DNA of 64,000 nucleotides from Terriglobia bacterium. Lineage in GTDB: Bacteria; Acidobacteriota; Terriglobia; Bryobacterales; UBA6623. Positions within the stretch are counted from its first letter, which is position 1. Each line of letters begins with the position of its first letter. The notes beneath the pieces are model-generated. The model worked only from the letters and a program-made list of their open reading frames with translations, did not search any database and was not told where the DNA came from. This document shows positions 1,917 to 61,257 of the stretch, one piece after another. The translations under genes were made by a program, and so were the position numbers. Location of the stretch: NCBI GenBank assembly GCA_009838515.1, contig VXRL01000092.1, positions 1-64,000 of the forward strand, given 5' to 3'.

Positions 1917-2158
1917 GGCGTGGGTCCCGAGAGCGCGGGTCGGGCTCCGCATGCTGAGGCGGGAGGTCGTGCGCTGGTTCACTCCGCCGTTGCAGTGGCG
2001 AGTCCTCGCGCATGGGCCCTTGGCCCACCCGTTTTGCGAGCGGGGCCGGTGACACGACACACGCGGGTGGCTGTGTGAGGCATGTCCAAGTTGACGAGGA
2101 CGCTGGAAGGTATCCAGCAGAATCGGTGCCGTCGTGCCCGGTCCGAGCCCGTCGCGGA

Positions 2159-3010
2159 TCAGTCCGCCTCGCCAGGCTTGGTGCTTGCTCTCCCACGCAG
2201 CCACTCCACCGTTCCGAGGAGGATCAGCGCCAACATGACCAAGAACGTAGCGACCGCTAGGATTTCGGGGCTGATCTCCTCGCGAATTCCGGTCCACATC
2301 TGCCGCGGAACGGTCCGCTGTTGCAGGCCGCCGAGGAACAGGACGGCGACCACCTCGTCGAACGACGCGGCGAATGCGAACAGAGCCCCTGAAATCACGC
2401 CGGGAGCGATCAGCGGCAACTGAATCCGGCGGAAGACGAGGAACGGCCCGCCACCCAGGCTTGCGCCCGCTTTGACGAGGTTGTGGTCAAACCCCGCGAG
2501 CGTGGCGGTCACGCTAATGACGACGAACGGCGTGCCGAAGACCGCGTGGGCAAGGATCACGCCGAGGTGCGTCTGCGCGATCCCTAGCTTCGAGTAGAAG
2601 AAGAACATGCCCGCTGCCGAAATGATGATCGGCGTGACCATCGGCGAGATCAGCAGGCTGGTGACGAATCCGCGTCCCGGCATCGCGCGATTCGCGAGGC
2701 CGAGCGCCGCGAGAACGCCCAGCACTGTGGCGATGGTGGTTGCCGTGACGCCGATGACAATGCTGTTGACCAACGCAAGCCGCCATTCGGCGTCCTCCAG
2801 AACGCCGCGATACCAGCGCAGCGAATAGGCGTCCGCGTCAAGCCGCAGCATGCCCTCGGTGAATGTGAAGTACGGCTCGGCATTGAAGCTGAGGGGAATC
2901 ACGACCAGCATGGGAGCGATCAGGAACAACAGCACGGCTCCGCAAACTGCCAAGTGAACCGCGCGTCCGGCGCGCTCGCTGAATTCGAAACTCGCCGTTG
3001 CGTGCCTCAT
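2159..3010 (-). CDS. potC: ABC transporter permease, polyamine-type (PotC-like)
   Basis: Inner-membrane permease of 283 residues, type I ABC importer fold. About six membrane helices are visible, starting with a segment around residues 18-35 (AVLLFLIAPMLVVIPLSF). The family's cytoplasmic coupling loop is present as VKAGASLGGGPFLVFRRIQL, matching the EAA-type motif that docks on the ATPase. The ATG overlaps the stop of the upstream permease gene by one base (TGATG), so it is the last gene of the four-gene operon. Longer in-frame readings to 3265 run inside the upstream gene and are rejected. Polyamine specificity is inferred from family resemblance; related transporters carry other small cations or amino acids. 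Confidence 0.85.
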   Translation of the reverse strand: MRHATASFEFSERAGRAVHLAVCGAVLLFLIAPMLVVIPLSFNAEPYFTFTEGMLRLDADAYSLRWYRGVLEDAEWRLALVNSIVIGVTATTIATVLGVLAALGLANRAMPGRGFVTSLLISPMVTPIIISAAGMFFFYSKLGIAQTHLGVILAHAVFGTPFVVISVTATLAGFDHNLVKAGASLGGGPFLVFRRIQLPLIAPGVISGALFAFAASFDEVVAVLFLGGLQQRTVPRQMWTGIREEISPEILAVATFLVMLALILLGTVEWLRGRASTKPGEAD

Positions 3011-4206
3011 CACGACAGCCTCATCCGTTCGATGCCGACAAGCCGGTTGTAGACGAGGTAGAGCGACATCACGGTGACCATCAGGATCACGCCGAGCGCC
3101 GCAGCAAGCCCCCAGTTCAGGGACTCCTGCATGTGGTACGCGATCATGTTCGAGATCAGTTGCCCGGTTCGCCCGCCCACCAAGGCTGGCGTGATGTAGT
3201 AGCCGATCGACAGGATGAAGACCAGCAGCGAGCCGGCGGCGACGCCTGGCAGCGATTGCGGCCAATAGACGCGCACGAAGCCCTGCCGGAAGGTTGCGCC
3301 GAGGCTCGACGCTGCCCGCAGATACGTGGGCGATATCGAACGCATGACCGCGTACATCGGGAGGATCATGAATGGCAGCAGGACCTGCGTCATGGCCACG
3401 AGCGTGCCGACCATGTTGTAGACGAGGGCGAGGCGGCCGTCGTTGCCGATGACGCCGGCTGCGACCAACAGGTCATTGACAACGCCTTGGTTCTGGAGAA
3501 GCACGATCCAAGACGTGGTCCGGACCAAGAGCGATGTCCAGAACGGCACCAGCACCAAGAGCAGCAGCAGGTTTGATCTGGCCGGCGAGGCGTTCGCGAT
3601 CAGATACGCGACCGGGTAGCCCAGAATTAGGCAGATTACCGTGATGGCGAGGCTGACTCCGAGCGTTCGCAGGAGCAGCGGCAGGTAGATCCGCCGTTCC
3701 GGAGACTGGGCAACGATGTTTCCCGGAGGGTCCCTGTCCAAGTCGAGCGCATTCAGGTAGTGGCGCATCGTATAGCGCTCGCCGGCGCGGCGCACGGCGC
3801 GCCACGCCGCCTCTTCGCCCCAAGCCGGATAGGCGGCGGTAAAGGCTTCGCGCCAGGAGTCCGGCTCGGCATTGCGCAGCGCCCGCGCCGTGTCCATAAT
3901 CGCGCTGCGCATTCCGCCTTCCAAGCGGTTGATGCGTGTCGCCACGCCGCCCAGCTTGCGCTCTTGGTCCAGCAAGCGGAGCTCGGTCGCCAGAATCCGG
4001 AACGTGTCCTCGCTCGGAACTGAGGATCCGTCCCACGCTCGCAGCGCTGCCAACGTCCGTGGCAGCGCGTCGGCCACGTGAGGTTCGTAGAAGCTCCGGA
4101 CCAGCATCGAGCCGAGCGGCGCGATGAAGGTCACGGCGACGAAGGCGAGCAGCGGAAGGGTGAGTGCCGCCGCCCGGAGCCGGGCGCCGCTCAGCGGGCG
4201 AGCCAT
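3010..4206 (-). CDS. potB: ABC transporter permease, polyamine-type (PotB-like) with large periplasmic insertion
   Basis: Inner-membrane permease of 398 residues. After the first membrane helix (~15-37) there is a hydrophilic, helical region of roughly 120-130 residues before the second helix (IYLPLLLRTLGVSLAITVIC). This explains why it is longer than the usual ~280-300 residues. Such long-loop PotB-like permeases are known in related importers. The remaining helices and the coupling loop (LRAASSLGATFRQGF) are normal. Start chosen at the ATG 4206, overlapping the binding-protein gene by 16 bases; an in-frame GTG at 4248 would overlap more. It pairs with the downstream PotC-like permease to form the membrane channel. 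Confidence 0.85.
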   Translation of the reverse strand: MARPLSGARLRAAALTLPLLAFVAVTFIAPLGSMLVRSFYEPHVADALPRTLAALRAWDGSSVPSEDTFRILATELRLLDQERKLGGVATRINRLEGGMRSAIMDTARALRNAEPDSWREAFTAAYPAWGEEAAWRAVRRAGERYTMRHYLNALDLDRDPPGNIVAQSPERRIYLPLLLRTLGVSLAITVICLILGYPVAYLIANASPARSNLLLLLVLVPFWTSLLVRTTSWIVLLQNQGVVNDLLVAAGVIGNDGRLALVYNMVGTLVAMTQVLLPFMILPMYAVMRSISPTYLRAASSLGATFRQGFVRVYWPQSLPGVAAGSLLVFILSIGYYITPALVGGRTGQLISNMIAYHMQESLNWGLAAALGVILMVTVMSLYLVYNRLVGIERMRLS

Positions 4207-5312
4207 GCGCTGAAGCGCTCGGTCAACTCTTCGGCATGGTTTGTCCACCAGACCGCGTCGTTGCGGAGGGCGCGAGTCAGGTTCTCGGGAGCGCTCGGCA
4301 TGTGAGGGCGCATCTCGACGCCGGTTTCGGCGTGCGTACTGATCAGGCTCATGCCGGACCGACGAGTGGGGCTATAGGCGATGTAGCGCCCGATCGCCGC
4401 AATCGATTCGACGCGGGAAGCGAACATGAGGAACTGCTTGGCCGCCTCGAGCCTGGGCGTTCCGGCAACAATGCCGGCCTGGCCGTAGTCCAGGACCTGA
4501 CCATCCCACACGATCGTAAAAGGCTGGTCCTCCAGTACCTGGGCATTGAATATGCGGCCGTTGTAGGCCGTGCTCATCACAACTTCCTGATCCGCCAGCA
4601 TCTGAGGCGGCTGCGCTCCGGCCTCCCACCAGACAACCTCGGCCTTGATCGTGTCGAGCTTGCGGAACGCGCGATCCAACCCTTCGGGCGTGCTCAGCAC
4701 GGCGTACACCTCCTCGGTGGGCACGCCATCGGCCATCAGGGCCATCTCGAGGTTTACTAACGGCACCCGACGCATCCCGCGACGGCCGGGAAACGTTGCG
4801 AGGTCGAAGAAGTCTTCGATCGTGGAGGGTCGCTCTCCAGGAAAGCTGTCGCGGTTATAGGCATAGGCGGTCGAATAGTAGACCATCCCTCCGCCGCAGT
4901 CCGAATAAGTGCCCTCAAAGTAGTCATCGCGGGCGGGCGTGCCGTCCGGGGCCGGCGGGAGTTCGTCAATGTCGATGAGTTCCAACAAGCCTTCGTCACA
5001 CCCTTTCACAGCGTCGGCGAACTCCAAGTCAACGACGTCCCAGTGGACGTTGCCAGTTTCAACCTGGGCGCGGATCTGCGCCAGCCCGCCGTTGTATCTC
5101 TCTACATGGACTGCGATGCCGGTCTCGGCGCTGAAGGGCTCGAAGAGGGCTTTTCGTGCCGCTGCCTCGTACGACCCGCCCCAAGAAACGACGGTGATCC
5201 CTTCGCTGCCGCAGCCGGTGCTCCAGGCAGCGAGCGCGGTCAGGAGCAGTGCAAGCTGGACCCTTCTTTGGTTGCGGGCGAGCACTCTCCAGTCACCTCG
5301 ATTTCCCATCAT
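4191..5312 (-). CDS. potD: ABC transporter substrate-binding lipoprotein, polyamine-type (PotD-like)
   Basis: Extracytoplasmic solute-binding protein of 373 residues with a lipoprotein signal: basic n-region, hydrophobic LALLLTALAAW and lipobox STGC (Cys34). The mature part begins with ITVVSWGGSYEAAARKA, typical of the SBP_bac_8/PotD family, and contains the hinge-type segments WDVVDLEFAD and MVYYSTAYAYN. It would deliver substrate to the two permeases encoded just downstream. The start at 5312 is set by a strong GGAGGAGGT ribosome-binding site 6 bases upstream; the frame is open further upstream to 5438 but without such a site. A gap of 122 bases separates it from the ATPase gene. Exact substrate unknown. 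Confidence 0.87.
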   Translation of the reverse strand: MMGNRGDWRVLARNQRRVQLALLLTALAAWSTGCGSEGITVVSWGGSYEAAARKALFEPFSAETGIAVHVERYNGGLAQIRAQVETGNVHWDVVDLEFADAVKGCDEGLLELIDIDELPPAPDGTPARDDYFEGTYSDCGGGMVYYSTAYAYNRDSFPGERPSTIEDFFDLATFPGRRGMRRVPLVNLEMALMADGVPTEEVYAVLSTPEGLDRAFRKLDTIKAEVVWWEAGAQPPQMLADQEVVMSTAYNGRIFNAQVLEDQPFTIVWDGQVLDYGQAGIVAGTPRLEAAKQFLMFASRVESIAAIGRYIAYSPTRRSGMSLISTHAETGVEMRPHMPSAPENLTRALRNDAVWWTNHAEELTERFSAWLAR

Positions 5313-5434
5313 GGCACGACCTCCTCCACCTGCCTCTTGATTGAGTCCGCTGGTTGCAGCTCTCTGATGAACTGATCTAGCCGAGGGTAAAACCGCCTGG
5401 GCGGGCGAATCGGTTGCCTGCGAGCCGTGGGCGC

Positions 5435-27324: not shown

Positions 27325-27747
27325 CTATGGCAGCACTTGCAGGCCTTCCAACTCGGCCGCTAGCGCCAGCTTCCTGTCAAAGCAGACGAACTCCAAGGGC
27401 CCTGCCACATGATCCTGAACCAGCAACACCGCGCCAAGCTGACCTGCATCGGCGGCGCGAATCCGATGTCGCGCCAGTAGATTGATGGCCCGTGAACGCA
27501 CGGCGACCGCGTCGGCTACCTCGTCCCAGCTCTCGGCAAGAGAATCTAGCCGGGCAAGGACTTGGCGACGCTGAAAGCGAGACAGGCTGCCTTCTCTCGT
27601 TCTACGTTCAATCGCAGCTGCAAGTTCGGTTCGTGTCCACAGCCATGTAACGATCTGCCCGTCCTGCCCTAGCCACTCAAGCGAGGTGCTGCCGCCCTTC
27701 TCTAACACGAGCAGCGTAACGAGTGCGGATGCGTCCCAAGGCCTCAG
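27325..27747 (-). CDS. vapC: PIN-domain toxin (VapC-like), apparent CTG start
   Basis: PIN ribonuclease-type toxin of 140 residues if initiated at CTG 27747. The first ATG/GTG/TTG in frame is a GTG at 27708, but that would remove the conserved start of the fold, xRPWDASALVTLLV, with the first catalytic Asp (D5). The paralogous toxin at 29375 begins ATG AGG ... TGG GAC; here the same codons are CTG AGG ... TGG GAC and overlap the antitoxin stop as CTGA. Other PIN acids are present: E in WTRTELAAAIE, D in RAADAGQLG and D in CFDRKL. It is encoded after its Phd-type antitoxin. It may use a near-cognate start or be inactivated. Confidence 0.75.
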   Translation of the reverse strand: MRPWDASALVTLLVLEKGGSTSLEWLGQDGQIVTWLWTRTELAAAIERRTREGSLSRFQRRQVLARLDSLAESWDEVADAVAVRSRAINLLARHRIRAADAGQLGAVLLVQDHVAGPLEFVCFDRKLALAAELEGLQVLP

Positions 27748-28025
27748 AGGCGGTCGTCCCGATCTTCGTGCAGCGCATCCAGAATACTCACGGGAAGATC
27801 CAGAGGAGGCTCTTTGAGGATCGCGGTTGGATCGCCTTTGCCACGCCTGATCAGTCCTCGATTGACAAGCCTCTCAAGTGTCTTGGGATCATCTCCAGCA
27901 GTGGCGGGGACAAGTCTTGCGACTGGCATCCCGCGATCGACGATTTGGACCTCACCGCCACGACGAACTTCATCGATGTAGCGCGACAGATTCGCCTTCA
28001 GCTGGGAGATCGATGTGGTTGTCAT
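27744..28025 (-). CDS. Phd/YefM-family antitoxin
   Basis: Antitoxin of 93 residues. The N-terminal 45 residues (SISQLKANLSRYIDEVRRGG, then EVQIVDRGMPVARLVP) match the Phd/YefM DNA-binding fold; the C-terminal half, rich in Leu/Pro, should bind the toxin. Start chosen at ATG 28025 (MTTTSISQ); an ATG nine bases upstream in frame is possible, and the open frame extends to 28076. The stop overlaps the PIN toxin start as CTGA. The module is divergent from the LOG-family gene. Phd antitoxins usually repress their own promoter; no clear promoter was identified by eye. Confidence 0.85.
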   Translation of the reverse strand: MTTTSISQLKANLSRYIDEVRRGGEVQIVDRGMPVARLVPATAGDDPKTLERLVNRGLIRRGKGDPTAILKEPPLDLPVSILDALHEDRDDRL

Positions 28026-28259
28026 TGAGTCCATTCTGATTCGTCGACCTAGACAAGTCTCGAAATGGCGCGACATCTCTGTAGGGCTGACACCGGGCCT
28101 GTGGTCGAACCTCGAAAATCTGTGTATACAAATGGATCAAGGCTGCCCGCGTCCGACCCCTTGCCTGCCACGGAAGAGCGCCGCGCCAGACCCAGGGGCC
28201 AGGCTAATGCTTGAGCCCGCAACGCCAGCCAAGTCGAGCGTGGCCTGTACGATGGGAGC

Positions 28260-28955: not shown

Positions 28956-29375
28956 TCACAGGACTGCAAATCCCTCCCGCCTTGCGGCTTCCGAGAGCCG
29001 ACTGTCACTGCAGACTATATCGAGCGTCGCCGGGTCTTCTCTGGATGCGGTCAGAGCGGCGGCCAACTGCACTGCATCGGCGCCGCGCAGCCGATGTACC
29101 CGCAGCAGACGCATCGCGCGATTCCGCACGCGCTGCATCGGCCGGATTTCAAGCCAGGTGGCCGCTAGCAGTCTCAACTGGTCCAGCGACTGATCTAGTT
29201 GACGGGCGTCGAGCGCTCCTTCCCGGTGCAGACGATTCAAGGCGGAAGCGCATTCGATCTGACTTCCCCACCAAGTGACGACAGAGGGGTCCTGTTGGAG
29301 GAGTTCAAATCTCCTTGCGCTTTCCGGTTCCGCTACTAGGAGCGCCACCAGAGCCGAGGAGTCCCAGTACCTCAT
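28956..29375 (-). CDS. vapC: PIN-domain toxin (VapC-like)
   Basis: PIN toxin of 139 residues. The fold starts with MRYWDSSALVALLV, placing the first catalytic acid at D5. Further acids are E in SQIECASALNR, D in RGADAVQLAAAL and D in VCSDSRLSEAA. Such enzymes cleave tRNA or rRNA when freed from antitoxin. The ATG overlaps the antitoxin stop by four bases (ATGA). It is clearly paralogous to the PIN gene at 27325, with the same overlap and opening codons. About 130 non-coding bases separate its end from the LOG gene. Confidence 0.9.
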   Translation of the reverse strand: MRYWDSSALVALLVAEPESARRFELLQQDPSVVTWWGSQIECASALNRLHREGALDARQLDQSLDQLRLLAATWLEIRPMQRVRNRAMRLLRVHRLRGADAVQLAAALTASREDPATLDIVCSDSRLSEAARREGFAVL

Positions 29376-29668
29376 CGGCTCTCGTCCCGTTCCTCCGCTA
29401 TCAGGCCGCTTGCACTCAAACCTTCTGGCAGGCGTGGCAAGGGCCTATCCATGAACGCTGCGACATCCAGTGAACCCTGAGGCGGATCAGCGATATCCCC
29501 TTGTACCAACTTGGCTGCGGCTTCGTCGGTCAACGCGTCCGCGTCACAAGGCCTGATTTGGGCAACAGGCTTGCCATGATGCGTGACCAGCACTGTTTCG
29601 CCACGACGAACCTCGTTTAGAAGGGCGCTGAGAGAATTCTTGGCTTCGCTAACACTGGCGCGTCTCAT
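29372..29668 (-). CDS. Phd/YefM-family antitoxin
   Basis: Antitoxin of 98 residues. N-terminal region SVSEAKNSLSALLNEVRRGE and VLVTHHGKPVAQIRP match the Phd/YefM fold. The C-terminal region is Pro/Leu-rich and acidic, as in toxin-binding tails. It precedes its PIN toxin with an ATGA overlap. Just upstream are a TAGAAT hexamer (minus strand, 29675-29680), the palindrome ATAGCTAT (29669-29676) and a near-palindrome ATAGCCGGTTAT (29692-29703), which may form promoter and operator. If TAGAAT is the -10 box the transcript would begin at or next to the ATG (leaderless). Confidence 0.87.
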   Translation of the reverse strand: MRRASVSEAKNSLSALLNEVRRGETVLVTHHGKPVAQIRPCDADALTDEAAAKLVQGDIADPPQGSLDVAAFMDRPLPRLPEGLSASGLIAEERDESR

Positions 29669-48398: not shown

Positions 48399-48534
48399 TT
48401 CGAACGATGCTCCTGCGGGCATCGCCTCGGGACTCGCGCCTGCGCGCGTCTTGAAAGTCGCCAGCGCACAGGCTAAGATGGAGTCGCACGAGTCGTCTCC
48501 GGTTACGGGCATCCGGGACGAGTGATGTTGGGCT

Positions 48535-51201
48535 ATGCGAACGCGCGTGAGCCGCTCGATCCTGCGACAGGTCTTCTCCGCTCCTGTGCGGAACGTGGCC
48601 ATTGGACTGGCTCTGATTGCGCCGGCTTCGGCCGCTCCGTCCGCAGAAGAGCTGTTTGTCGAGACCATCCAGCCCACCCTGAAGCAGCAGTGCCTTGGCT
48701 GCCACGGCGAGGCGAACACATTCGCCAAGCTGGACTTGCGGACGCGCGAAACGGCCATCAAGGGCGGACAGCGCGGTCCCGCCATCATCAGTGGCGATCC
48801 CGCTTCGAGCCTGCTCATCTCGGCCATCGACCATGCTGGCGAGCCACAAATGCCTCCCGGCGGGGCTGAGAACAGGCTCTCCGCCGACGTGCGACTTGCA
48901 TTTCGCGAATGGATCCGTTCCGGCGCACCGTACGTGCAGGCCGAGAGGGCCCTGGACTGGGACTTCGACGAGGCAGACCTTTGGGCTTTCCGACCTGTCG
49001 AGAAAGTCAAGCTGCCGACAGCTGGCGTGGATCCGGCGCTGGTACAGACAAGCGTCGATAGCTTCATCTTGGCGAAACTCGCGGAAGCGAGCGTCGCACC
49101 TGCCCCTGCGGCCGACAAGGTCACGCTGATCCGGCGCGTGACATACGATCTGACCGGATTGCCTCCGACTCCACGAGAGGTTGAGGAATTCGTCAGTGAC
49201 GATTCGCCCAACGCCTACAAGGCGCTGGTAGAGCGCCTGCTTGATTCCCCCCGCTATGGCGAGCGCTGGGGGCGGCACTGGCTGGACGTGACCCGCTACG
49301 CCGACACGTCGGGCTACTCCAATGACTTTGAGCGACCTAACGCCTGGCGCTACCGCGACTACGTCATCCGCAGCTTCAATCACGACAAGCCCTATGACCA
49401 GTTCGTGCTTGAGCAGGTGGCCGGCGACGAGCTATTTCCCGATAACCCTGACGCGATCATCGCCACGGGGTTCCTGCGAAGTGGTCCCTGGGAGCACACT
49501 GGCATGGCCGTGGCGGCAGTCTCGCGGCAGCTCTTCCTTGACGACGTCACACACCATGTCGGCCAGTCCTTCCTAGGTTTGACGCTGGGTTGCGCTCGCT
49601 GTCACGACCACAAGTTCGATCCGATTCCAACGCGGGACTACTACCGCATCCAAGCCGTTTTCACCGGCACGGCATTCGCCCGCCGACCGCTGGACTTCTT
49701 GCCCCATGAGTCCACGGCCGGCTTTGAGGTTGGCCGTAGCGCGTTCGAGGCTCGCATCGCAACCCTCGAGCGCCGCCTGCACAACCTGCACGAGTCTGCC
49801 CGCGTGCGCTTGGCCGAGGCCAAGGGCCAAGAGGAAGCCGCCAACGCTGCGAGCTCGGTCCTTCAACGGTACATGGACAAGGAAGAGGCCGAGTTGCTCA
49901 AGCTGCTCCGCAAGCGGGTCACGATGCACAAACTGTCGGTCTTGAGGTTCGAGCCTCTGGCCATGACGGTCAGCAACGGCTTAGTACGGGAGTGGGACGC
50001 CGTCGCCTCGCGCAACAGCTACATGCAGCCCGCCGAATACCGGGAAGCCAAGACGCACGTGCTGGTTGGTGGCGACATCCAGTCGCCCGCGCAGGAGGTC
50101 ACACCCGGCGTGCTGGAAGCGGTAGAGCGCTACGCGGGCTTTCCATCGCCCAAGATCCCGGACGGGTTGGAAGGCCGGCGCTCAGAGCTGGCGAAGTGGA
50201 TCGTGAACCCGCGCAATCCCCTCACTGCCCGGATCATGGTCAACCGTATCTGGCAGTACCACTTCGGCCGGGGCTTGGCAGCCAATCCGAACAACTTCGG
50301 CAAGATGGGCAAGAAGCCGTCCCACCCCGAGCTACTGGACTGGCTGGCTGGATTCTTCGTCGATCAGGCTTGGAGCGTCAAGGCGGTCCATCGCGTGATC
50401 TTGCTCTCGGCCGCCTACCAGCGTTCCAGCACTCATCCGAATCAGGCCGAGGTGGACGCCAAGGATCCCGAGAACCTTTACCTGTCGCACTTCTCTCCTA
50501 GGCGGCTCGAAGCTGAGGAGCTGCGGGACAGCATCATCTCGGTCGCGGGCGAATTGAGCGATATGACCGGCGGTCCCGGCACCTACCCCCAGATCAATGC
50601 CGACGTGGCTCTGCAGCCGCGCCACGCGATGGGCTCGCTGCGGCCGATCTACGAGCCTGAGCCGACACGGCGGCGCCGCAACCGCAGGTCCGTCTACAGC
50701 TTCCAGCAGCGCAGCTTGATCGATCCGATGGTCGAAGTGTTCAACGGCGCCAACCCAGACCTCACATGCGAGCGCCGCGAGTCCTCGACTGTTCCCACGC
50801 AGGCCTTCGCGCTGCTGAATTCCGAACAATCTAGGGACATGGCGCTGATCATGGGGGAGCGCTTGGCCGAGATTCCGCCAGTTGACCGCATCGACGCCGC
50901 ATTCCGGCTGGCTTTTGGGCGTCGGGCGGACGACAATGAACTAGCTTGGACGCAACAGTTCCTTGAGGAGATGACGGACTACCACGGTCGAAACCCGGCC
51001 CAGCCGCGCCGGCCCCCGGACGACGTGGTGCACCAGATCACGAGCGAGCTGACGGGCGAGAAGTTCGAGTTCGTGCAGCCCGCCTACAGCGGTCCATACG
51101 AGCACAATCCGCATCCCAGCGATTCCTCGCCAGAGGCGCGCGCTCTGGCGGATCTGGCGCTCGCGCTGTTCAATTCCAACGAGTTCGTCTACGTGTATTG
51201 A
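48535..51201 (+). CDS. PSD1 protein: PSCyt1 cytochrome c - DUF1549 - DUF1553
   Basis: Exported protein of 888 residues, second copy of the family. Signal peptide VAIGLALIAPASAAP; PSCyt1 with CLGCH (53-57) and PQMPPGG; DUF1549 with LIRRVTYDLTGLPPTPREVE, YGERWGRHWLDVTRYADTSG and CARCHDHKFDP (353-357); then a charged, probably coiled-coil linker ~405-470 (ARIATLERRLHNLHESARVR, LQRYMDKEEAELLKLL). DUF1553 from ~550 has NPLTARIMVNRIWQYHFGRG and CERRESSTVPTQAFALLN. The linker coiled coil is absent from the first copy. Its stop is two bases before the ATG of the DUF1501 gene, so the pair is coupled. Confidence 0.9.
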   Translation: MRTRVSRSILRQVFSAPVRNVAIGLALIAPASAAPSAEELFVETIQPTLKQQCLGCHGEANTFAKLDLRTRETAIKGGQRGPAIISGDPASSLLISAIDHAGEPQMPPGGAENRLSADVRLAFREWIRSGAPYVQAERALDWDFDEADLWAFRPVEKVKLPTAGVDPALVQTSVDSFILAKLAEASVAPAPAADKVTLIRRVTYDLTGLPPTPREVEEFVSDDSPNAYKALVERLLDSPRYGERWGRHWLDVTRYADTSGYSNDFERPNAWRYRDYVIRSFNHDKPYDQFVLEQVAGDELFPDNPDAIIATGFLRSGPWEHTGMAVAAVSRQLFLDDVTHHVGQSFLGLTLGCARCHDHKFDPIPTRDYYRIQAVFTGTAFARRPLDFLPHESTAGFEVGRSAFEARIATLERRLHNLHESARVRLAEAKGQEEAANAASSVLQRYMDKEEAELLKLLRKRVTMHKLSVLRFEPLAMTVSNGLVREWDAVASRNSYMQPAEYREAKTHVLVGGDIQSPAQEVTPGVLEAVERYAGFPSPKIPDGLEGRRSELAKWIVNPRNPLTARIMVNRIWQYHFGRGLAANPNNFGKMGKKPSHPELLDWLAGFFVDQAWSVKAVHRVILLSAAYQRSSTHPNQAEVDAKDPENLYLSHFSPRRLEAEELRDSIISVAGELSDMTGGPGTYPQINADVALQPRHAMGSLRPIYEPEPTRRRRNRRSVYSFQQRSLIDPMVEVFNGANPDLTCERRESSTVPTQAFALLNSEQSRDMALIMGERLAEIPPVDRIDAAFRLAFGRRADDNELAWTQQFLEEMTDYHGRNPAQPRRPPDDVVHQITSELTGEKFEFVQPAYSGPYEHNPHPSDSSPEARALADLALALFNSNEFVYVY

Positions 51202-51203
51202 AG

Positions 51204-52625
51204 ATGAAACGCCGAATCCTCACCGCCAGCCCCTCCCGGCGCGAGTTCCTGTACCACTCCGGCATGGGGCTCGGTGCCATCGCGCTCTCGGGATTGTTGC
51301 ACCAAGAACGCGCCAGGGCCGGCGAGTTGGCGCCCCGGCGCGGTCACCATGCGGCCAAGGCCAAGAGCTGCATCTTCTTGCTGATGGAGGGCGGGCCGAG
51401 CCACATCGACACATTCGATCCGAAGTCCAAGCTGGTCGACCTCCACATGACGGAGTTCGTCAAGGAGCGCAACAGGTTCGAGGCGAGCATGAACACGGGC
51501 AAGCGCTACTTCGTGCGCAGCCCGTTCGAATTCCGCCGCGCGGGTCAGCTGGGAATCGAGATCAACGCCAAGCTGAGCAACTTTGCGGACTGCGTTGACG
51601 ACGTCTGCTTCTACCGAGGCTTGCAAGCCACTTCGGTGAACCACCCGACAGCCCTGTACCACCTCAACACCGGCAACCGATTCGGCGGGGATCCCGCGAT
51701 CGGTTCGTGGGTCACCTACGGACTGGGGACGGAAAACCAGAACCTGCCGGGCTTCGTCGTGCTGCCGGATCTGGCCTATCCGCAGGGCGGCACCGGGAAC
51801 TGGTCCAACGGATTCCTGCCCGCGCATTACCAAGGCGCGCCGCTGCGCTCGCAGGGCGCCCCCGTGCTGGACATGAGGCCGCCGGAGTACGTCACGCAGA
51901 AACAGCAGGAAACGACGCTTGACTATCTTGGCCGGCTGAACAAGAGGCACATGCAGCGCCACCCCAGTCACGCAGAACTCGCTGCTCGTATCGAGAGCTA
52001 CGAGCTAGCGTTCCGGATGCAGGCCGAGATGCCGGAGGCGATCAATCTGGATGCCGAGCCGCAGGAGACGAAAGCCTTGTACGGCGTCGGTTCGGACGAT
52101 TCAGAGGTGGACTCGATCGGCAGGCGCTGCCTGCTGGCGCGCCGCCTTGTGGAGCGCGGCGTGCGCTTCGTGCAGGTGATCGTGTCCGGCTGGGATTCCC
52201 ACGACTACATCGAAAAGGCGCACGGAACGCGCCTCGATTCGATCGACCGTCCGATCGCCGGGCTGCTCAAGGATCTCAAGCGCACGGGCCTGCTCGACGA
52301 GACCTTGGTCGTGTGGGCCGGAGAATTCGGGCGCTCTCCGGACAACGGCATCCGCGGCGGAGGGACCGCTTGGGGACGCGACCACAACGCGCCCGCGATG
52401 GCGTTCTGGGTGGCGGGCGGGGACGCTCCGCGCGGCCAGATCGTCGGTGCCACCGACGAGACCGGGCGGACAGCGGTCGAGGTCGTGCATCCGATCCAGA
52501 ACATGCACGTGACGCTCTTGCACCTGCTGGGACTGGACGACGCCGAGCTCACCTATTTCGCGCAGGGCAGGGACAAGCAGCTCAGCCAGACCGGCGGCGA
52601 GCTGATCAGGGAACTGGTGGCGTAG
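51204..52625 (+). CDS. DUF1501 protein, Tat-exported
   Basis: Protein of 473 residues. Twin-arginine motif SRREFLYHS before a hydrophobic stretch (GLGAIALSGLL). Family blocks CIFLLMEGGPSHIDTFDPKS, WVTYGLGTENQNLPGFVVL, GFLPAHYQGAPL, the VVWAGEFGRSPDNGIRGGG acidic block and RDHNAPAMAFWVAGGDAPRG. Start chosen at ATG 51204, two bases after the PSD1 stop; a TTG six bases upstream is in frame. It follows PSD1 and precedes, by ~170 bases, an Oar-like receptor, the same order as in the 15-21 kb cluster. Confidence 0.9.
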   Translation: MKRRILTASPSRREFLYHSGMGLGAIALSGLLHQERARAGELAPRRGHHAAKAKSCIFLLMEGGPSHIDTFDPKSKLVDLHMTEFVKERNRFEASMNTGKRYFVRSPFEFRRAGQLGIEINAKLSNFADCVDDVCFYRGLQATSVNHPTALYHLNTGNRFGGDPAIGSWVTYGLGTENQNLPGFVVLPDLAYPQGGTGNWSNGFLPAHYQGAPLRSQGAPVLDMRPPEYVTQKQQETTLDYLGRLNKRHMQRHPSHAELAARIESYELAFRMQAEMPEAINLDAEPQETKALYGVGSDDSEVDSIGRRCLLARRLVERGVRFVQVIVSGWDSHDYIEKAHGTRLDSIDRPIAGLLKDLKRTGLLDETLVVWAGEFGRSPDNGIRGGGTAWGRDHNAPAMAFWVAGGDAPRGQIVGATDETGRTAVEVVHPIQNMHVTLLHLLGLDDAELTYFAQGRDKQLSQTGGELIRELVA

Positions 52626-52796
52626 CCGCGCGAATCGCCGCGCCACTGATCGCGTAGCTGCCCGGCCCTGTACCCGCGTGCAGAATTGATTGCGTCTGAC
52701 GGTTTAGTGGATCCAATTTCCTGCTCCGGACGTCCGGACGCCGCTGGCTTTTCTGGAGGCCCTGTTGGATAGCCACCCCGACACCAAACACTGGAA

Positions 52797-55370
52797 ATGA
52801 TCCACGTTCTTGCTAGGCTGATTGTGCGCATGAATCCGCTGCCTCTACGGCTCGGACTTCGCTCCGATCTTCCGGCTTTAGCCGTAGTTGCGCTTGCGGG
52901 GCTGGCGTCTTCGCAGGACCCGCTACAGGCGCAAGGTGCCGCTCAGCCGATCATCGGCCAGGCGTACATCGTCGGATCCGAAGGCGAGCATTTCGGCGTT
53001 CCGGGCGCGGTGATCGAACTGCATTCTGTCTCCGTGGAAGAGCTTGCGCCCGGTGACGTGGCCGGACCGGCCACCGCCGAGACGGACGAGTTGGGCCTGT
53101 ACCGCTTCGATGCCGTGGCTGAGGGCTGCTACTTCCTCAGCGCGACTTCTGCCGGGCTGAGCGGCCAGAGCGACATCGTATGCGTGCCCACCGAGGATGA
53201 AGCGCTTCGGACCGACATCGCCATGGAGGTCGATACCGTGGTCGAGTCGGTGAATGTCACAGCGTCGGTGATCGAGATCGACCCGACCGAGACGACCTCG
53301 TCCGGTTCGGTGGGCATCTCGACGCTGGACAACGCGCCGAAAGCGAACCGCAGCGTAGAGGACGTGATGCCGCTGATCCCGGGCGTGCTGCGGGGCCGCG
53401 CCGGCGAGATCAACATGAACGGGGTGCGGGCGACCCAGAGCGGATCGCAGCTCAACAACATCGACGTGACCGATCCCGTGTCCCGCATCTCCGAAATGAC
53501 GCTGCCGCTGAGCGTCGTCTCGAGCGTCGAGGTGCTCTCCAGTCCGTACGATGCGCAATACGGTGGGTTTGCCGGCGCCCTGTCCACGGTCGAGACCACA
53601 CCGGCGGACGCATCGGAGTTTCACTTCGAGCTCCAGAACTTCACCCCTCGCATTCGGCGCCGTGCGGGGCGTGTCTCGGGCATCGAATCGAGCACGCCGC
53701 GGCTGACGCTCAACATTCCCCTGATCTCCAACCGCGTGGCTTGGCTGCATGCCACCGAGTACCAGTACGTGCGGGCCGACCAAGAGGACGCCAACCTGCC
53801 GCTCTACGAGCGCGACGTCGAGCGGGAAATGCTGACGATCTTCAACCAGTTCGACGTGTCCGTGTCTGAGAAGAACCGTGCCTCGCTGACCGCCTTGGTA
53901 TATCCCGAGAAGTTCAGTTACTTCGGGCTCAACGCATTCACGCCGCAGCTGTCTACGGCAGACCTGCGCAAGCGCGCGTTCCTGTACACGGTCAAGGACT
54001 CGCACGAGTTTGGCACGGGAGGCATCCTGCTTTCCCACTTTTCGATCCAGGACATCGAGAACGATGTCAAGCCGCTCGGCTACGAACCCAGCATCATCGG
54101 CATCGACCGAGTATCGGGCTCGTTCTTCAACCGGCAGGCGCGGGCGACGACGCGTCGCAAGCTCTCCGAGCTGTACCACTTCCGCCCTCTGGGGGACCAC
54201 CAGCTCAAGGCCGGCGCTGACCTGGGCTGGGAGTCGTACTCGGGCCAGCAAATCTTCAATCCCGTCACCTGGCTGGGGGCGGCGGGCCAGCCGGTGCTGA
54301 ATCTGGCCTACACCGATCCTGCAATGGTGCAGGGGAGAAAGGTCGACTTCGCGACCTTCGTGCAAAACAAGTGGAGGGTCAGCGACTCGCTGACGCTCGA
54401 CATGGGCGGCAGGCTGGAGCGGGACTCCCTGTCCTCGCAGTGGAATCCCTCGTATCGGCTCGGCTTCGCCTATGCGCTCGGTTCCGCCGCGCGCACCGTC
54501 CTGCGGGGCGGCTCCGGGCTATTCGTGGACCGCATCAGCCTGTTGGTGCCGACCTTCGAGCAGTTGCCCCTGCGCATCGAGACGAGGTTCGATCCCTATG
54601 GCGACGTGCTGTATCGGCGCAACCTGCTGTCGCGGCTGGACGGACCGTTGCGCAATGCGAAGAGCCTCGGCTGGAACCTCCAGCTGGACCACGAGCTGAT
54701 CGACAACCTGTTCGTGCGCACCGGCTACCAATTCCGGCGGACCACGAGCAACTTCCTGGTGAACCCGGTCTACGGGGGCGGCCTCGAAGAGGACGATCCC
54801 GTTCTGACCATGAGCAACGACGGCGCCGACCTGTACCGCGAGTTCCAGCTCTCCGTGCGCTACCGGCTCAGCGGGACCGGGCATATCACCGTCTCGTACG
54901 TCAACTCGAGTTCGTACGGCGACCTGAACGACTTGGGATCGATCTACGGGCCGACGCCATCGAGCCTGATCTTGCCGAACGAACGCGCGCCGTTGCGCTT
55001 TGACGTGCCCCACCGAATGCTGACTTGGACCGAGTTCAACCTGCCTTGGGGGTTCAAGACGATACCTGTGTGGGACATACGCAGCGGTTTTCCGTATTCC
55101 AGGACGAACGAGTACCGGGATTTCGTCGGGGCGCGCAACCGCGCCGGGCGCTTTCCCCTGTTCAACGCCCTTGACTTGCAGGTCACCAAGATGATCGACA
55201 TCGAATTCAAAGGCAAGAACCGCCGGATCCGCGCCGGATTCCGGCTCTTCAACCTGCTCAACAACTTCAACCCGCAAGATGTGCAGGAGAACATGGCGAG
55301 CGCATACCACGGGGTGTTCTACCGCGGTGTGAAGCGCAAGATCCGCGCCGTGTTCGAGATCGAATACTGA
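52797..55370 (+). CDS. Oar-like TonB-dependent receptor, short form
   Basis: Outer-membrane receptor-like protein of 857 residues. Signal region ~22-45 (LPALAVVALAGLASSQDPLQ), carboxypeptidase-regulatory domain ~50-135 (IIGQAYIVGSEGEHFGVPGA, YRFDAVAEGCYFLSAT), plug with EDVMPLIPGVLRGRAGEINM and LNNIDVTDP, then beta-barrel strands to the C-terminus (FEIEY). It resembles the short receptor at 19088 in length and position after a PSD1-DUF1501 pair rather than the 1085-residue receptor. An ATG at 52830 (MNPLPL) is an alternative start. It sits between the second and third DUF1501 genes. Confidence 0.85.
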   Translation: MIHVLARLIVRMNPLPLRLGLRSDLPALAVVALAGLASSQDPLQAQGAAQPIIGQAYIVGSEGEHFGVPGAVIELHSVSVEELAPGDVAGPATAETDELGLYRFDAVAEGCYFLSATSAGLSGQSDIVCVPTEDEALRTDIAMEVDTVVESVNVTASVIEIDPTETTSSGSVGISTLDNAPKANRSVEDVMPLIPGVLRGRAGEINMNGVRATQSGSQLNNIDVTDPVSRISEMTLPLSVVSSVEVLSSPYDAQYGGFAGALSTVETTPADASEFHFELQNFTPRIRRRAGRVSGIESSTPRLTLNIPLISNRVAWLHATEYQYVRADQEDANLPLYERDVEREMLTIFNQFDVSVSEKNRASLTALVYPEKFSYFGLNAFTPQLSTADLRKRAFLYTVKDSHEFGTGGILLSHFSIQDIENDVKPLGYEPSIIGIDRVSGSFFNRQARATTRRKLSELYHFRPLGDHQLKAGADLGWESYSGQQIFNPVTWLGAAGQPVLNLAYTDPAMVQGRKVDFATFVQNKWRVSDSLTLDMGGRLERDSLSSQWNPSYRLGFAYALGSAARTVLRGGSGLFVDRISLLVPTFEQLPLRIETRFDPYGDVLYRRNLLSRLDGPLRNAKSLGWNLQLDHELIDNLFVRTGYQFRRTTSNFLVNPVYGGGLEEDDPVLTMSNDGADLYREFQLSVRYRLSGTGHITVSYVNSSSYGDLNDLGSIYGPTPSSLILPNERAPLRFDVPHRMLTWTEFNLPWGFKTIPVWDIRSGFPYSRTNEYRDFVGARNRAGRFPLFNALDLQVTKMIDIEFKGKNRRIRAGFRLFNLLNNFNPQDVQENMASAYHGVFYRGVKRKIRAVFEIEY

Positions 55371-55474
55371 CATACGGCGCTTGCCTCAGACCGCCTGCGC
55401 ACCGCGCCAGCGGTGCCAGAGAAGCGCTTTGAAGCGGGTTCGCCGGCGCACTGGTTGGGTATACTCAGGACGAA

Positions 55475-56851
55475 ATGTCGCTAGCGGATGGCCGCCACTC
55501 GACGCGGCGACAGTTTGTCAGTTCCCTCTGCGGCGGTTTCGGGGCCGTCGGGCTGTCGGCGATGCTGCAAGAGCAGCTTGGCGGCGCGGTTTCCGGCCCG
55601 GTAGGGCCGCACTTCGCCCCGCGCGCCAAGCACGTCATATTCCTCTTCATGACGGGCGGGCCGTCGCACATGGATCTATTCGATCCCAAGCCCGCCTTGC
55701 GGACCCATGCCGGCGAGCGGCCCGAGACCGTTGACCTGCGCACCGAACGTATGACCGGCGGCCTGCTGCCGTCCCCGTTCGAGTTCCGTCGCCGCGGCCA
55801 GAGCGGGATTGAAGTCAGCGAGCTGCTGCCCGATCTCGGCGCGGTCGTGGACGATTTGTGCGTCATCCGGTCGATGTACACGTTCAATCCGACCCACACG
55901 CCGGCGCGTAACCTAATTCATTCAGGCAACATCGCTTCGACCAGGCCCTCGCTCGGCGCTTGGATTTCCTACGGTCTCGGGACCGAGAACCGCAATCTGC
56001 CGGGCTTCGTGGTGCTGAGCCCGGGCGCGCGGGGCGGCGACTTGTGGCGCGCGGGATTCCTGCCCGCCGAGCATCAGGGCACGCACTTCAACCATGCCGA
56101 GACCGATCCGGACCGGATGATCCGCTACCTGCGCAACGACACGCTGGGAGCCGAGGCACAGCGCCGCCAGCTTGATCTGATGCAGGCGTTGAACCGGGAT
56201 CATCAGGGCCGGGTGGGTGGCGATGCCTATCTCGACGCGCGCATTCGGGCGATGGAGACCGCCTACCGGATGCAGTTTGAAGCCCTCGATGTCTTCGATG
56301 TGCGCAAGGAGCCCGCGTCGGTTCGCGAGGAGTACGGCGAGACGCCGTTCGCCAACGGCTGCCTGCTGTCCCGCAGGCTGGTCGAAAAGGGCGTCCGCTA
56401 CGTGCATGTCTACTACGGACCGGGGCAGCCCTGGGACGACCACATCGACATCAACAAGAATCTCCGCGAGCGCTGCCCGGACATGGACCGAGCGTCGGCG
56501 ACCTTGATTCGCGATCTGAAACGCCGCGGCCTGCTGGACGAGACACTGGTGATCTGGGGCGGCGAGTTCGGCCGCACGCCGGTTTCGGAGGCGGGAGACG
56601 GCCGCGACCACAATCCCTACGGCTTCACCATGTGGATGGCCGGCGGAGGAGTCAAGGGCGGCATAGCGTACGGCGCGACGGACGAATTCGGCTTCCAGGC
56701 CGTTGAGAACCGGGTGAGCATCCATGACCTGCACGCCACCATCCTGAACCAGCTCGGGTTCGATCACGAGCGGCTCACCTATCGCTATGCGGGGCGAGAC
56801 TTCAGCCTGACCGACGTGCATGGCGCGGTGCTGCGGGAATTGCTGGCATGA
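55475..56851 (+). CDS. DUF1501 protein, Tat-exported
   Basis: Protein of 458 residues. Twin-arginine motif STRRQFVSSLCGGFGAVGL. Family blocks HVIFLFMTGGPSHMDLFDPK, WISYGLGTENRNLPGFVVL, the acidic VIWGGEFGRTPVSEAGDGRD block and YGFTMWMAGGGVKGG; the C-terminal IHDLHATILNQLGFDHERLT is the region also found as a relic at 21594. Gene order is reversed relative to the other two clusters: DUF1501 precedes PSD1, with an ATGA overlap at 56848. It is 104 bases after the receptor. Confidence 0.92.
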   Translation: MSLADGRHSTRRQFVSSLCGGFGAVGLSAMLQEQLGGAVSGPVGPHFAPRAKHVIFLFMTGGPSHMDLFDPKPALRTHAGERPETVDLRTERMTGGLLPSPFEFRRRGQSGIEVSELLPDLGAVVDDLCVIRSMYTFNPTHTPARNLIHSGNIASTRPSLGAWISYGLGTENRNLPGFVVLSPGARGGDLWRAGFLPAEHQGTHFNHAETDPDRMIRYLRNDTLGAEAQRRQLDLMQALNRDHQGRVGGDAYLDARIRAMETAYRMQFEALDVFDVRKEPASVREEYGETPFANGCLLSRRLVEKGVRYVHVYYGPGQPWDDHIDINKNLRERCPDMDRASATLIRDLKRRGLLDETLVIWGGEFGRTPVSEAGDGRDHNPYGFTMWMAGGGVKGGIAYGATDEFGFQAVENRVSIHDLHATILNQLGFDHERLTYRYAGRDFSLTDVHGAVLRELLA

Positions 56852-59193
56852 GACTGCCCGCGCTGCTGCTCGGGGGCGCCGTGGCGGCGCTAGCGCAGAG
56901 CCCGGAGATCGAGTTCTTCGAGCGCCGCATCCGGCCGGTGCTGGTCGAACAGTGCGAGGTCTGCCATTCGTCAAGCTTGGCCGAGCCCATGGGCGGGCTG
57001 GTAGTAGACAGCCGCGACGGCCTGCTTTCGGGAGGGTCGACGGGTCCGGCACTGTTGCCGGGCAACGCCGAAGCCAGCCTGTTGCTGAAGGCTCTGCGCT
57101 ACCTCGACCCGGTGCTGAAGATGCCTCCTACCGGGAAGCTGCCAGACCGTGTGATCGAGGACTTTCAGGCTTGGATCGCTAGCGGGGCTGCCGATCCGCG
57201 GAGCGAACCGCGCGAGTCCGTCAGCGAGGATGCCGGCGCATCCGGCCCCGGAACTCCGATCGAAGAGGGCCGCAGCTGGTGGGCCTTTCAGCCGCTGCGC
57301 GAACGGCTGGCCCCCGAAGTCTCAGACCCTGATTGGACCCTACGCAAGGTCGACGCATTCGTGCTCGCCAAGCTGGACGGGCACGGGATGCGGCCGTCGC
57401 CCGCGGCGGACCCGAGGACGTTGATCCGCAGGGCCTACCTTGACCTGACGGGCTTGCCGCCGAGCTTCGAGGAAACCGAGGCGTTTGCGGCCGACCCGTC
57501 CATGGACGCCTACAGCGACCTGATCGACAGCTTGCTGCGCTCGCCCCGCTACGGGGAACGCTGGGGGCGGTACTGGCTGGACGTGGCGAGGTGGGCAGAG
57601 GACCACCCGACCAGCGAGGCGACGAATCGGCCGTTCCAGCACGCGTGGCGATACCGCGACTGGGTGATCGAGGCCATCAACAAGGACATTCCCTACGACC
57701 GATTCATCCGCATGCAGTTTGCCGCTGACCTGCTGCCCGGATTCGAGCCAGCGGACATGCGCGCTCTGGGCTACCTGGGGAACGCGCCCGTGTATCACAA
57801 GGATCGGCGCTTGTCACGTGATGTGATCGAGACGATCGCCAGCGACGATTGGGACGAGCGCGTCGATGCCGTATCACGGGGCCTGCTCGGTCTGACGGTC
57901 GCCTGTGCCCGCTGCCATGACCACAAGTTCGACCCCATCACGGCCAAGGACTACTACGCGTTGGCCGGGGTGTTTGCCAGCACTTGGCAGGTCAACCGGC
58001 CCATGGTTGCCCTGGACCCCGAACAGGCCAACTGGCTGACTTGGAAGCACGAGGAGCTCTATCGCACCAAGGGAGTGTTCGGCAACTTGAAGGACCTAGA
58101 CACGGTTGCAGAGGAGTTGCATGCCGAGATCTTGGCCATGAAGCCCGCATACGAACGGCTGGAACTGGAACTGTCGGCGTATGAAGTGCCCATGACGCCC
58201 GCCGTCGTTGATTGCGGCGTGTGGGTAGACGGCTCAACGCCCACCGTGACTCGGATGGACCTGCGCCCCGGCCAGCCGCGCGACCTGCCGGTCTTCGTCC
58301 GCGGCAACGTCGCCAATCCGGGCGAGATCGTGCCGCGGCGGTTTCTGAGCGTGTTCGAGCCGGGCGGGCCGACTGCCTTCAAGCAAGGCTCGGGACGCTT
58401 GGAGCTTGCCGAAAAGATCGTCGGAGAGGCTGGTCCGCTGGCCGCGCGGGTCTGGGTCAACCGCGTCTGGGGCTGGCACTTCGGCAGGCACCTGGTGCGG
58501 ACTCCGTCGGACTTTGGCACGCAGGGGCAGGAGCCGACGCATCCCGCCTTGCTTGAGGATCTGTCCGCGCGTTTCGTGGTCAACGGCAAATCCTTGAAGT
58601 GGTTGCACCGGGAGATCATGCTCTCCGCGACATACCGCCAGAGCAGTCGCGACGATCCAGAGGCCGGCGCGGCGGATCCTACCAACCGACTGCTTTGGAG
58701 GATGAATCCGCGCCGGCTTGACGTAGAGGCGTGGCGCGACTCCATCCTGTCGGCGTCGGGCGAGTTGAGCCTCGCCGGGGGAGGCCCTTCGAGCGAGGTC
58801 GACTCTCCCGACGTCACGCGGAGGTCGGTCTATTCGCGCATAAGCCGGGGCAGACTGCACCCAGTGCTGCAGCTCTATGACTTCCCGGTCGCGACGCAGC
58901 ACAGCCCTTTCCGGCAGGTAACCACCACCCCTTTGCAGCAACTGTTCGTACTCAATAGCGGCTGGATGCAGGCGCGCGGGCGCAGTCTGGCCGAGGCCGT
59001 GGGATCGGTGAGCGATCGTGCCGGGCGCATCAGGGCCATGTACCGCCGCGCCTACGGACGAGATCCGAGCGCGAGGGAAGTAGAGCTTGGCCTTGGATAT
59101 CTAGATGAACGGCGCGCCGTCATGGGGCGCGAGCCCTGGGACGAGTACGCCCACACCCTGCTTGCTGCGAACGAGATTAGCTTCCTGAACTGA
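56848..59193 (+). CDS. PSD1 protein: PSCyt1 cytochrome c - DUF1549 - DUF1553
   Basis: Exported protein of 781 residues, the shortest of the three copies. Signal peptide LPALLLGGAVAALAQ; PSCyt1 with CEVCH (36-40) and LKMPPTGKLPD; DUF1549 with LIRRAYLDLTGLPPSFEETE, YGERWGRYWLDVARWAEDHP and CARCHDHKFDP (353-357); helical linker ~390-440; DUF1553 with GPLAARVWVNRVWGWHFGRH, then a C-terminal part where the usual CxRR(E/D)SSTVPTQ block is replaced by QVTTTPLQQLFVLN. Start overlaps the DUF1501 stop (ATGA). It is convergent with the cytochrome c-helix-hairpin-helix gene, overlapping it by 17 bases. Confidence 0.9.
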   Translation: MRLPALLLGGAVAALAQSPEIEFFERRIRPVLVEQCEVCHSSSLAEPMGGLVVDSRDGLLSGGSTGPALLPGNAEASLLLKALRYLDPVLKMPPTGKLPDRVIEDFQAWIASGAADPRSEPRESVSEDAGASGPGTPIEEGRSWWAFQPLRERLAPEVSDPDWTLRKVDAFVLAKLDGHGMRPSPAADPRTLIRRAYLDLTGLPPSFEETEAFAADPSMDAYSDLIDSLLRSPRYGERWGRYWLDVARWAEDHPTSEATNRPFQHAWRYRDWVIEAINKDIPYDRFIRMQFAADLLPGFEPADMRALGYLGNAPVYHKDRRLSRDVIETIASDDWDERVDAVSRGLLGLTVACARCHDHKFDPITAKDYYALAGVFASTWQVNRPMVALDPEQANWLTWKHEELYRTKGVFGNLKDLDTVAEELHAEILAMKPAYERLELELSAYEVPMTPAVVDCGVWVDGSTPTVTRMDLRPGQPRDLPVFVRGNVANPGEIVPRRFLSVFEPGGPTAFKQGSGRLELAEKIVGEAGPLAARVWVNRVWGWHFGRHLVRTPSDFGTQGQEPTHPALLEDLSARFVVNGKSLKWLHREIMLSATYRQSSRDDPEAGAADPTNRLLWRMNPRRLDVEAWRDSILSASGELSLAGGGPSSEVDSPDVTRRSVYSRISRGRLHPVLQLYDFPVATQHSPFRQVTTTPLQQLFVLNSGWMQARGRSLAEAVGSVSDRAGRIRAMYRRAYGRDPSAREVELGLGYLDERRAVMGREPWDEYAHTLLAANEISFLN

Positions 59194-61174: not shown

Positions 61175-61257
61175 GGAGTGATCTGCCGGGGCGTGACGGC
61201 TCGAAACAGCCGTCCGAACAATCATACCGTTCGGCAAACTAGAATAGTGCAACGACC

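What the first reader, a model, noticed from the sequence alone, without database searches (positions are those of the whole stretch)
27708..27747. PIN toxin with CTG at the start position
The paralogous module starts toxin translation with ATGAGG...TGGGAC overlapping the antitoxin stop. At the equivalent place this copy has CTGAGG...TGGGAC, with the same overlap. No ATG/GTG/TTG upstream keeps the first catalytic Asp. Either a near-cognate start is used, lowering toxin dose, or the toxin has lost its start and the antitoxin persists alone.
Basis: seen in the sequence. Interest (0 to 1): 0.55.

Follow-up and report, generated by a model that had tools for sequence, protein, structure and literature searches.

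The report
Bacterial toxin gene starting with CTG
A bacterial toxin gene that should begin with ATG or GTG begins with the very weak start codon CTG; the same oddity recurs, intact, in distant relatives, which suggests that these toxins can be deliberately under-produced, although this particular copy could also be fading away.

Summary
On the minus strand a Phd/YefM antitoxin ends in TGA and the VapC-type (PIN) toxin frame begins with CTG inside CTGA at 27747. No conventional start lies between the upstream in-frame stop and the first catalytic Asp. It is not a read error: a second assembly (G010) shares it. Orthologues have ATG (G005) or GTG (G004, G017), so CTG is derived; the frame is otherwise intact.

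In other Acidobacteriota, intact VapC toxins have only a near-cognate start at the antitoxin stop: CTG in one genus across 58% protein identity, and in one Terriglobia genus CTG (two genomes) or AUC/AUU (a sister set). Within these sets dN/dS, where computable, is 0.07-0.27. Of 33 toxins in one Terriglobia survey none starts with ATG. Near-cognate starts thus appear to be used, and weak starts favoured, in coupled VapC toxins.

For the window copy, sequence cannot separate a low-dose CTG start from early decay: its substitutions fit neutrality (P = 0.27), its Shine-Dalgarno match is the weakest of the CTG set, and several orthologous modules are broken. I favour weak CTG initiation (0.57) over start loss (0.35).

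The parts
27744..28025 (-). Phd/YefM-family antitoxin, 93 codons from ATG (MTTTSISQLK...) to TGA; longer in-frame ATG starts lie at 28034 and 28076
   Evidence: PF02604 E 5.9e-11, above cut-off; TIGR01552 phd_fam E 1.3e-9; reading frame
27744..27747 (-). CTGA: CTG at the toxin start position overlapping the antitoxin TGA by the usual 4 nt
27325..27747 (-). VapC-type PIN toxin, 140 codons from CTG plus stop; acidic residues D5, E41, D100, D124 present
   Evidence: PF01850 E 4.5e-4, 21.2 bits, below the 23.6 cut-off; the four acids are invariant in A1
27757..27760 (-). GGGA, a weak Shine-Dalgarno-like match upstream of the CTG
   Evidence: best anti-SD duplex -4.0 kcal/mol, against -10.3 at the GTG orthologue L034
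27706..27708 (-). next conventional start (GTG); initiation here would remove the first catalytic Asp
28956..29375 (-). paralogous PIN toxin with ATG start
   Evidence: 44% identity to the CTG toxin
29372..29668 (-). antitoxin of the paralogous module, Phd/YefM family
   Evidence: PF02604 E 4.1e-9

Best explanation
This is a Phd-VapC type toxin-antitoxin operon whose toxin start codon changed from GTG or ATG to CTG in the window's lineage. Ribosomes that finish the antitoxin at TGA (or fresh ribosomes at the weak Shine-Dalgarno site) re-initiate at the overlapping CUG at low frequency, giving fMet-initiated full-length toxin at a small fraction of the antitoxin dose. Shown: the sequence, the intact frame with the catalytic acids, the derived state of CTG, and the recurrence of near-cognate-only starts in intact, purifying-selected relatives. 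Inferred: that CUG is actually read here, that coupling drives it, and that the low dose is the benefit.
For: The ORF is intact, with all acids, in G000 and G010. Outside the window, toxins with CTG as the only possible start persist: L076, L079 and L080 (L076 is 58% identical to the other two; dN/dS 0.11 at dS 0.16 for L079/L080, 0.25-0.27 at dS about 1.5 against L076) and L146/L148 (dN/dS 0.10, dS 0.83). A sister set of six toxins with AUC/AUU (one also with CTG) and no ATG/GTG/TTG has dN/dS 0.07-0.20 in the 9 of 15 pairs where dS was computable. On a tree of 122 toxins CTG-only needs 5 changes, 4 of them forced by well-supported branches. CTG-only occurs in 11 of 71 toxins with the TGA overlap and 0 of 45 without it (Fisher p 0.006, rows not independent). 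Toxin starts in one Terriglobia survey are GTG 19, TTG 6, CTG 2, AUC/AUU 6, ATG 0 of 33. CTG initiation of a low-level toxin has a precedent in an Rhs toxin (PMC7043789, passages).
Against: In the window lineage itself the toxin substitutions (9 nonsynonymous, 6 synonymous, codon 1 left out) do not differ from neutral expectation (10.0 nonsynonymous; P = 0.27), and dN/dS against G005 is 0.35 versus 0.13 against G004. The Shine-Dalgarno match is the weakest of the 11 CTG-only rows, equal with G010. A mostly conserved Tyr at position 3 became Pro. Orthologous modules are often broken: antitoxin nonsense in G005, toxin frameshift in G017, truncation and loss of the first Asp in G001/G003. Among 43 PIN genes read in this genome and relatives, none is CTG-only.
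Confidence: 0.57

Rival explanations
1. Start loss and early decay: the toxin is effectively silent in G000/G010 and the antitoxin persists alone or with residual repressor function; the intact frame simply reflects recency.
For: Neutral-looking substitution pattern; weak Shine-Dalgarno match; orthologues broken in several different ways; switches to CUG are very rare among annotated genes, 1 of 5,080 ancestral GUG and 2 of 61,358 ancestral AUG (PMC5622118, passages).
Against: No stop or indel in 140 codons, although 15 random substitutions would give no stop 56% of the time, so this is weak; no invariant family column is changed, but that list includes the window toxin itself, so this is partly circular. 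CTG-only toxins elsewhere are plainly maintained. The antitoxin branch also shows 8 nonsynonymous to 4 synonymous changes, so any relaxation is not confined to the toxin.
Confidence: 0.35
2. A truncated toxin is made from the downstream GTG (27708), without the first Asp, as a non-catalytic partner of the antitoxin.
For: It is the next conventional start in frame.
Against: It would remove the first strand and the catalytic Asp; in L076, L079 and L080 the N-terminal residues before any internal GTG remain conserved, so relatives do not behave that way.
Confidence: 0.06
3. Sequencing or assembly error of an ATG or GTG.
For: A single base decides it, and the antitoxin Leu codon is silent to it.
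Against: Two assemblies share it, with other differences between them; the G010 record carries a coverage of 76 in its title (that L052 is the same contig as G010:C56 is inferred from its length and coordinates).
Confidence: 0.02

Closest known systems
VapBC / Phd-VapC type II toxin-antitoxin modules (PIN-domain toxin, PF01850; Phd/YefM antitoxin, PF02604)
   Same: Operon order, 4-nt stop-start overlap, PIN domain with four acids, Phd antitoxin
   Different: CTG in place of ATG/GTG/TTG; PIN score just below the Pfam cut-off
Translational coupling at NTGA stop-start overlaps (PMC6728339: start of abstract and one passage; PMC12548453: passages)
   Same: NTGA -4 spacing, the commonest overlap; upstream translation promotes downstream translation
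   Different: The passages I saw do not discuss a CUG in this role
Internally expressed Rhs orphan toxin translated from CTG (PMC7043789, passages)
   Same: A toxin paired with an immunity protein, started at CTG, reported at low level
   Different: Different toxin family and no antitoxin-stop overlap; the CTG is inside a larger gene
Kis-Kid (parD), with toxin translation coupled to the antitoxin (PMC3920265, passages)
   Same: Coupling limits toxin made without antitoxin
   Different: Non-canonical start not mentioned in the passages seen

Membership tests
VapC / PIN-domain toxin | PIN domain by profile | tested here: inconclusive
   PF01850 E 4.5e-4, 21.2 bits, cut-off 23.6; relatives L080 (32.6), P0002 (26.8), L146 (28.9) and L151 (29.7) are over it, P0003 (19.4) is not; A1 finds PDB 2fe1 at E 6.3e-4
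VapC / PIN-domain toxin | Conserved acidic residues (roles recalled) | tested here: met
   D5, E41, D100, D124 invariant in A1
VapC / PIN-domain toxin | Predicted PIN fold | tested here: inconclusive
   AlphaFold2 with 4 sequences, mean pLDDT 56.7, residues 1-38 under 50
VapC / PIN-domain toxin | Ribonuclease activity neutralised by the antitoxin | not testable with these tools
   needs expression and assay
Type II toxin-antitoxin operon | Antitoxin gene directly upstream, overlapping the toxin | tested here: met
   Phd antitoxin, CTGA overlap
Type II toxin-antitoxin operon | Conventional toxin start codon (expected of an expressed module as usually annotated; not a defining feature of the protein family) | tested here: not met
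   No ATG/GTG/TTG before the Asp
Near-cognate-start VapC group (proposed here) | CTG or AUC/AUU the only possible start, frame under purifying selection | tested here: inconclusive
   Start feature met for the window copy; selection not demonstrable for it, shown for relatives

The most novel reading that the evidence does not exclude
In Acidobacteriota, VapC toxins that overlap or abut the antitoxin stop are systematically started on weak codons, and in several independent lineages the start is fixed as a near-cognate codon (CUG, AUC or AUU) under purifying selection. Start-codon choice would then be an evolved dial for the toxin:antitoxin ratio, and such toxins are invisible to gene finders that allow only ATG/GTG/TTG. 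A bolder extension, untested here, is that initiation fidelity (for example IF3 level) could gate toxin synthesis.
Probability: 0.55. Interest if true: 0.75.

Novelty: new variant of a known kind. Interest (0 to 1): 0.55.

Why it matters
Type II toxins must be made in smaller amount than their antitoxins. If CUG or AUC/AUU is a conserved toxin start, start-codon strength joins autoregulation and coupling as an evolved control of the ratio. Annotation pipelines limited to ATG/GTG/TTG would truncate or drop these toxins and report 'solitary' antitoxins. The recurrent cases give natural replicates for measuring near-cognate initiation at stop-start overlaps.

Tried and rejected
Sequencing error: rejected because G010 shares the CTG. 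Upstream alternative start in frame: none, including ATT/ATC/ATA. Mobile copies: P0001 in plasmids finds only 13 Thermus plasmid VapCs at 35% identity; P0002 finds none at E 1e-8. Viral contigs: the CTG pattern gave 2 hits, neither a VapC; of 14 ATG/GTG/TTG-pattern hits only L212 matched the profile, weakly and over a short stretch. Structure prediction was uninformative, so no fold search was run. Stronger Shine-Dalgarno compensation at CTG: not significant (Mann-Whitney p 0.14). Stop readthrough as the common explanation of the AUC/AUU clade: the TAG is in frame only in L287, L288 and L294, not in L289, L292 or L293, so a near-cognate start is the shared feature. PADLOC: no match.

Limits. 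The survey profile A1 contains 4 CTG-start toxins among its 10 rows, and the 128 unique rows pool hits of several searches, so 11 of 71 is not an unbiased frequency. The pattern pair without that bias gave 2 CTG against 5 ATG/GTG VapC-like matches in 199 genomes (a third CTG hit, G151, is not a VapC, and the 5 were judged from their matched letters and not read). Two of the 11 CTG-only rows, L184 and L147, have a stop inside and are probably pseudogenes. L075 has a GTG 31 codons before the Asp. In L151 (= L292) an ATT follows the CTG. dN/dS values come from my own Nei-Gojobori script, and dS above about 1.5 is near saturation. Of the 39 matches only the 30 with loci were read. Only 36 of 83 antitoxin starts could be read (ATG 22, GTG 12, TTG 1, none 1). 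Only 43 of 73 PIN loci could be read by motif; one of these (L279) had no conventional start. Of the NuoK control, 26 of 30 were read in frame and 25 had ATG or GTG; L245 had none within 12 codons upstream.

Full report
What is there. On the minus strand a Phd/YefM antitoxin (PF02604, E 5.9e-11; TIGR01552) ends with TGA at 27744. The next frame codes for a 140-residue VapC-type PIN protein (PF01850 E 4.5e-4, slightly under the curated cut-off). At the expected start, inside the usual 4-nt overlap, stands CTG. Between the upstream in-frame stop and the first Asp there is no ATG, GTG, TTG, ATT, ATC or ATA and no other CTG. The paralogous module 1.6 kb away has ATG at the same place. The four acidic residues invariant in the family alignment are present.

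Not an error, and derived. G010, a separate assembly, has the same CTG; the toxin differs by one synonymous base and the antitoxin by one replacement. G010 and the window are 99.5% identical over 43 kb, so G010 argues against a read error but not for long conservation. The orthologues have ATG (G005, 88% identity) and GTG (G004, 80%; G017, 62%), so CTG arose in the G000/G010 lineage from GTG or ATG.

Is this copy decaying? With G004 as outgroup, the G000 branch has 9 nonsynonymous and 6 synonymous toxin changes (codon 1 left out), against a neutral expectation of 10.0 nonsynonymous (P = 0.27); the G005 branch has 7 and 7. dN/dS between G000 and G005 is 0.35 for the toxin and 0.36 for the antitoxin, against 0.13 and 0.15 to G004. 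This cannot tell weak constraint from none. Orthologous modules are broken in different ways: an antitoxin nonsense codon in G005, a 14-bp tandem duplication that shifts the G017 toxin frame, and truncation with loss of the first Asp in G001 and G003. Apart from the CTG pair, G004 is the one orthologue read as intact in both genes.

Relatives show that near-cognate starts are used. A pattern search of 199 Acidobacteriota genomes for CTGA before the toxin N-terminus gave two VapCs (G127, G244) and one unrelated hit, while the same pattern with A, G or T gave five matches. In the genus of G244 three toxins, L076, L079 and L080, begin CTG AAG TAC TGG GAT with no ATG/GTG/TTG upstream in the open frame. 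L079 and L080 have dN/dS 0.11 at dS 0.16, and both are 58% identical to L076. A profile search of 396 genomes found 92 with a match. Together with the earlier loci this gave 128 unique toxin starts, classed: with the TGA overlap GTG 27, ATG 24, TTG 9, CTG-only 11; overlap CTG with an ATG closer to the Asp 12 (these count as ordinary); no overlap 41; none 4. CTG-only is 11 of 71 with the overlap and 0 of 45 without it. On a tree of 122 of them CTG-only needs 5 changes, 4 forced by well-supported branches.

A Terriglobia case. In one genus (7 of 62 genomes with a match) none of the seven toxins has ATG/GTG/TTG before the Asp. L285/L286 (the same genes as L146/L148 and L295/L296) have CTG in the overlap. 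The others have ATC or ATT one codon later, directly after or overlapping the antitoxin stop; one of them (L290 = L151 = L292) has both CTG and ATT. A family-wide search (39 of 299 genomes; 30 of the 39 matches fetched, read with L287-L289, 33 in all) gave GTG 19, TTG 6, CTG 2, ATC/ATT 6 and no ATG. The CTG stands at the position of GTG or TTG in the sister toxins. dN/dS is 0.10 for the CTG pair (dS 0.83-0.85) and 0.07-0.20 in the 9 of 15 pairs of the AUC/AUU set where dS was computable, although dS there is 1.6 or more.

Controls. Antitoxin starts in the same operons: ATG 22, GTG 12, TTG 1, none 1 of 36 read, 47 not read. PIN genes of this genome and its order: 0 CTG-only of 43 read; 30 of 73 loci not read, one read locus with no conventional start. 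NuoK: 25 of 26 read in frame have ATG or GTG; 4 of 30 were read in a wrong frame. In the literature, ancestral AUG starts became CUG in 2 of 61,358 cases and GUG in 1 of 5,080 (PMC5622118, passages). Those are annotated genes, where CUG is probably under-called, so the comparison is rough.

Mechanism. The best reading is re-initiation, or weak independent initiation, at the CUG that overlaps the antitoxin stop, with fMet as first residue (established knowledge of bacterial initiation). The -4 overlap is the commonest arrangement of closely spaced genes, which can be translationally coupled (PMC12548453, passages). A 2025 paper, citing the 64-codon measurements that I could not open, lists CUG, AUA, AUU and AUC among the seven strongest start codons in E. 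coli (PMC12350097, passages). A CTG-started toxin made at low level has been reported for an Rhs element (PMC7043789, passages). The window's Shine-Dalgarno match (-4.0 kcal/mol) is the weakest of the CTG set, so output here would be very low.

Known or new. The module is an ordinary Phd-VapC operon. Four searches of the open-access library for toxin-antitoxin or VapC papers with CUG, CTG or other non-canonical starts showed only the Rhs paper as a CTG-started toxin; the listings showed none either. This covers only openly licensed papers, and only 20 of 50 rows were shown. The conserved near-cognate start in VapC toxins is therefore, as far as I could check, a new variant of a known kind.

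Verdict. Observation confirmed; interpretation partly supported. CUG use in this copy is likelier than not but unproven; near-cognate starts in related, intact toxins are well supported by sequence conservation, not by experiment.

Noticed in passing
L033 / L053 (G005): The orthologous antitoxin carries a nonsense codon at position 16 (TAC to TAA) while the toxin keeps ATG and an intact frame.
   Followed up: partly
L047 / L035 (G017): The orthologous toxin is frameshifted by a 14-bp tandem duplication; the distal part is still well preserved.
   Followed up: partly
L297-L321 (Terriglobia family f4): A VapC-like group with Glu in place of the first catalytic Asp (19 of 27 toxins read), all with GTG or TTG starts and none with ATG.
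   Followed up: no
L287, L288, L294: Antitoxin and toxin lie in the same frame, separated only by a TAG stop followed directly by ATC or ATT; stop readthrough to a fusion is conceivable but not shared by the sister genes.
   Followed up: partly
whole genome G000: 48 PIN-domain matches in one genome, with 37-48 in several congeners: a VapC-rich genus.
   Followed up: no
window 5473-48399 versus 48469-62684: Identity to G010 is 99.5% over the first stretch and 96.2% beyond it, a sharp step that suggests a recombined block.
   Followed up: no
window 2147-5326: This stretch matches a place about 1.5 kb earlier on the G010 contig at 89%, which suggests a neighbouring duplicated gene or an indel between the two genomes.
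   Followed up: no
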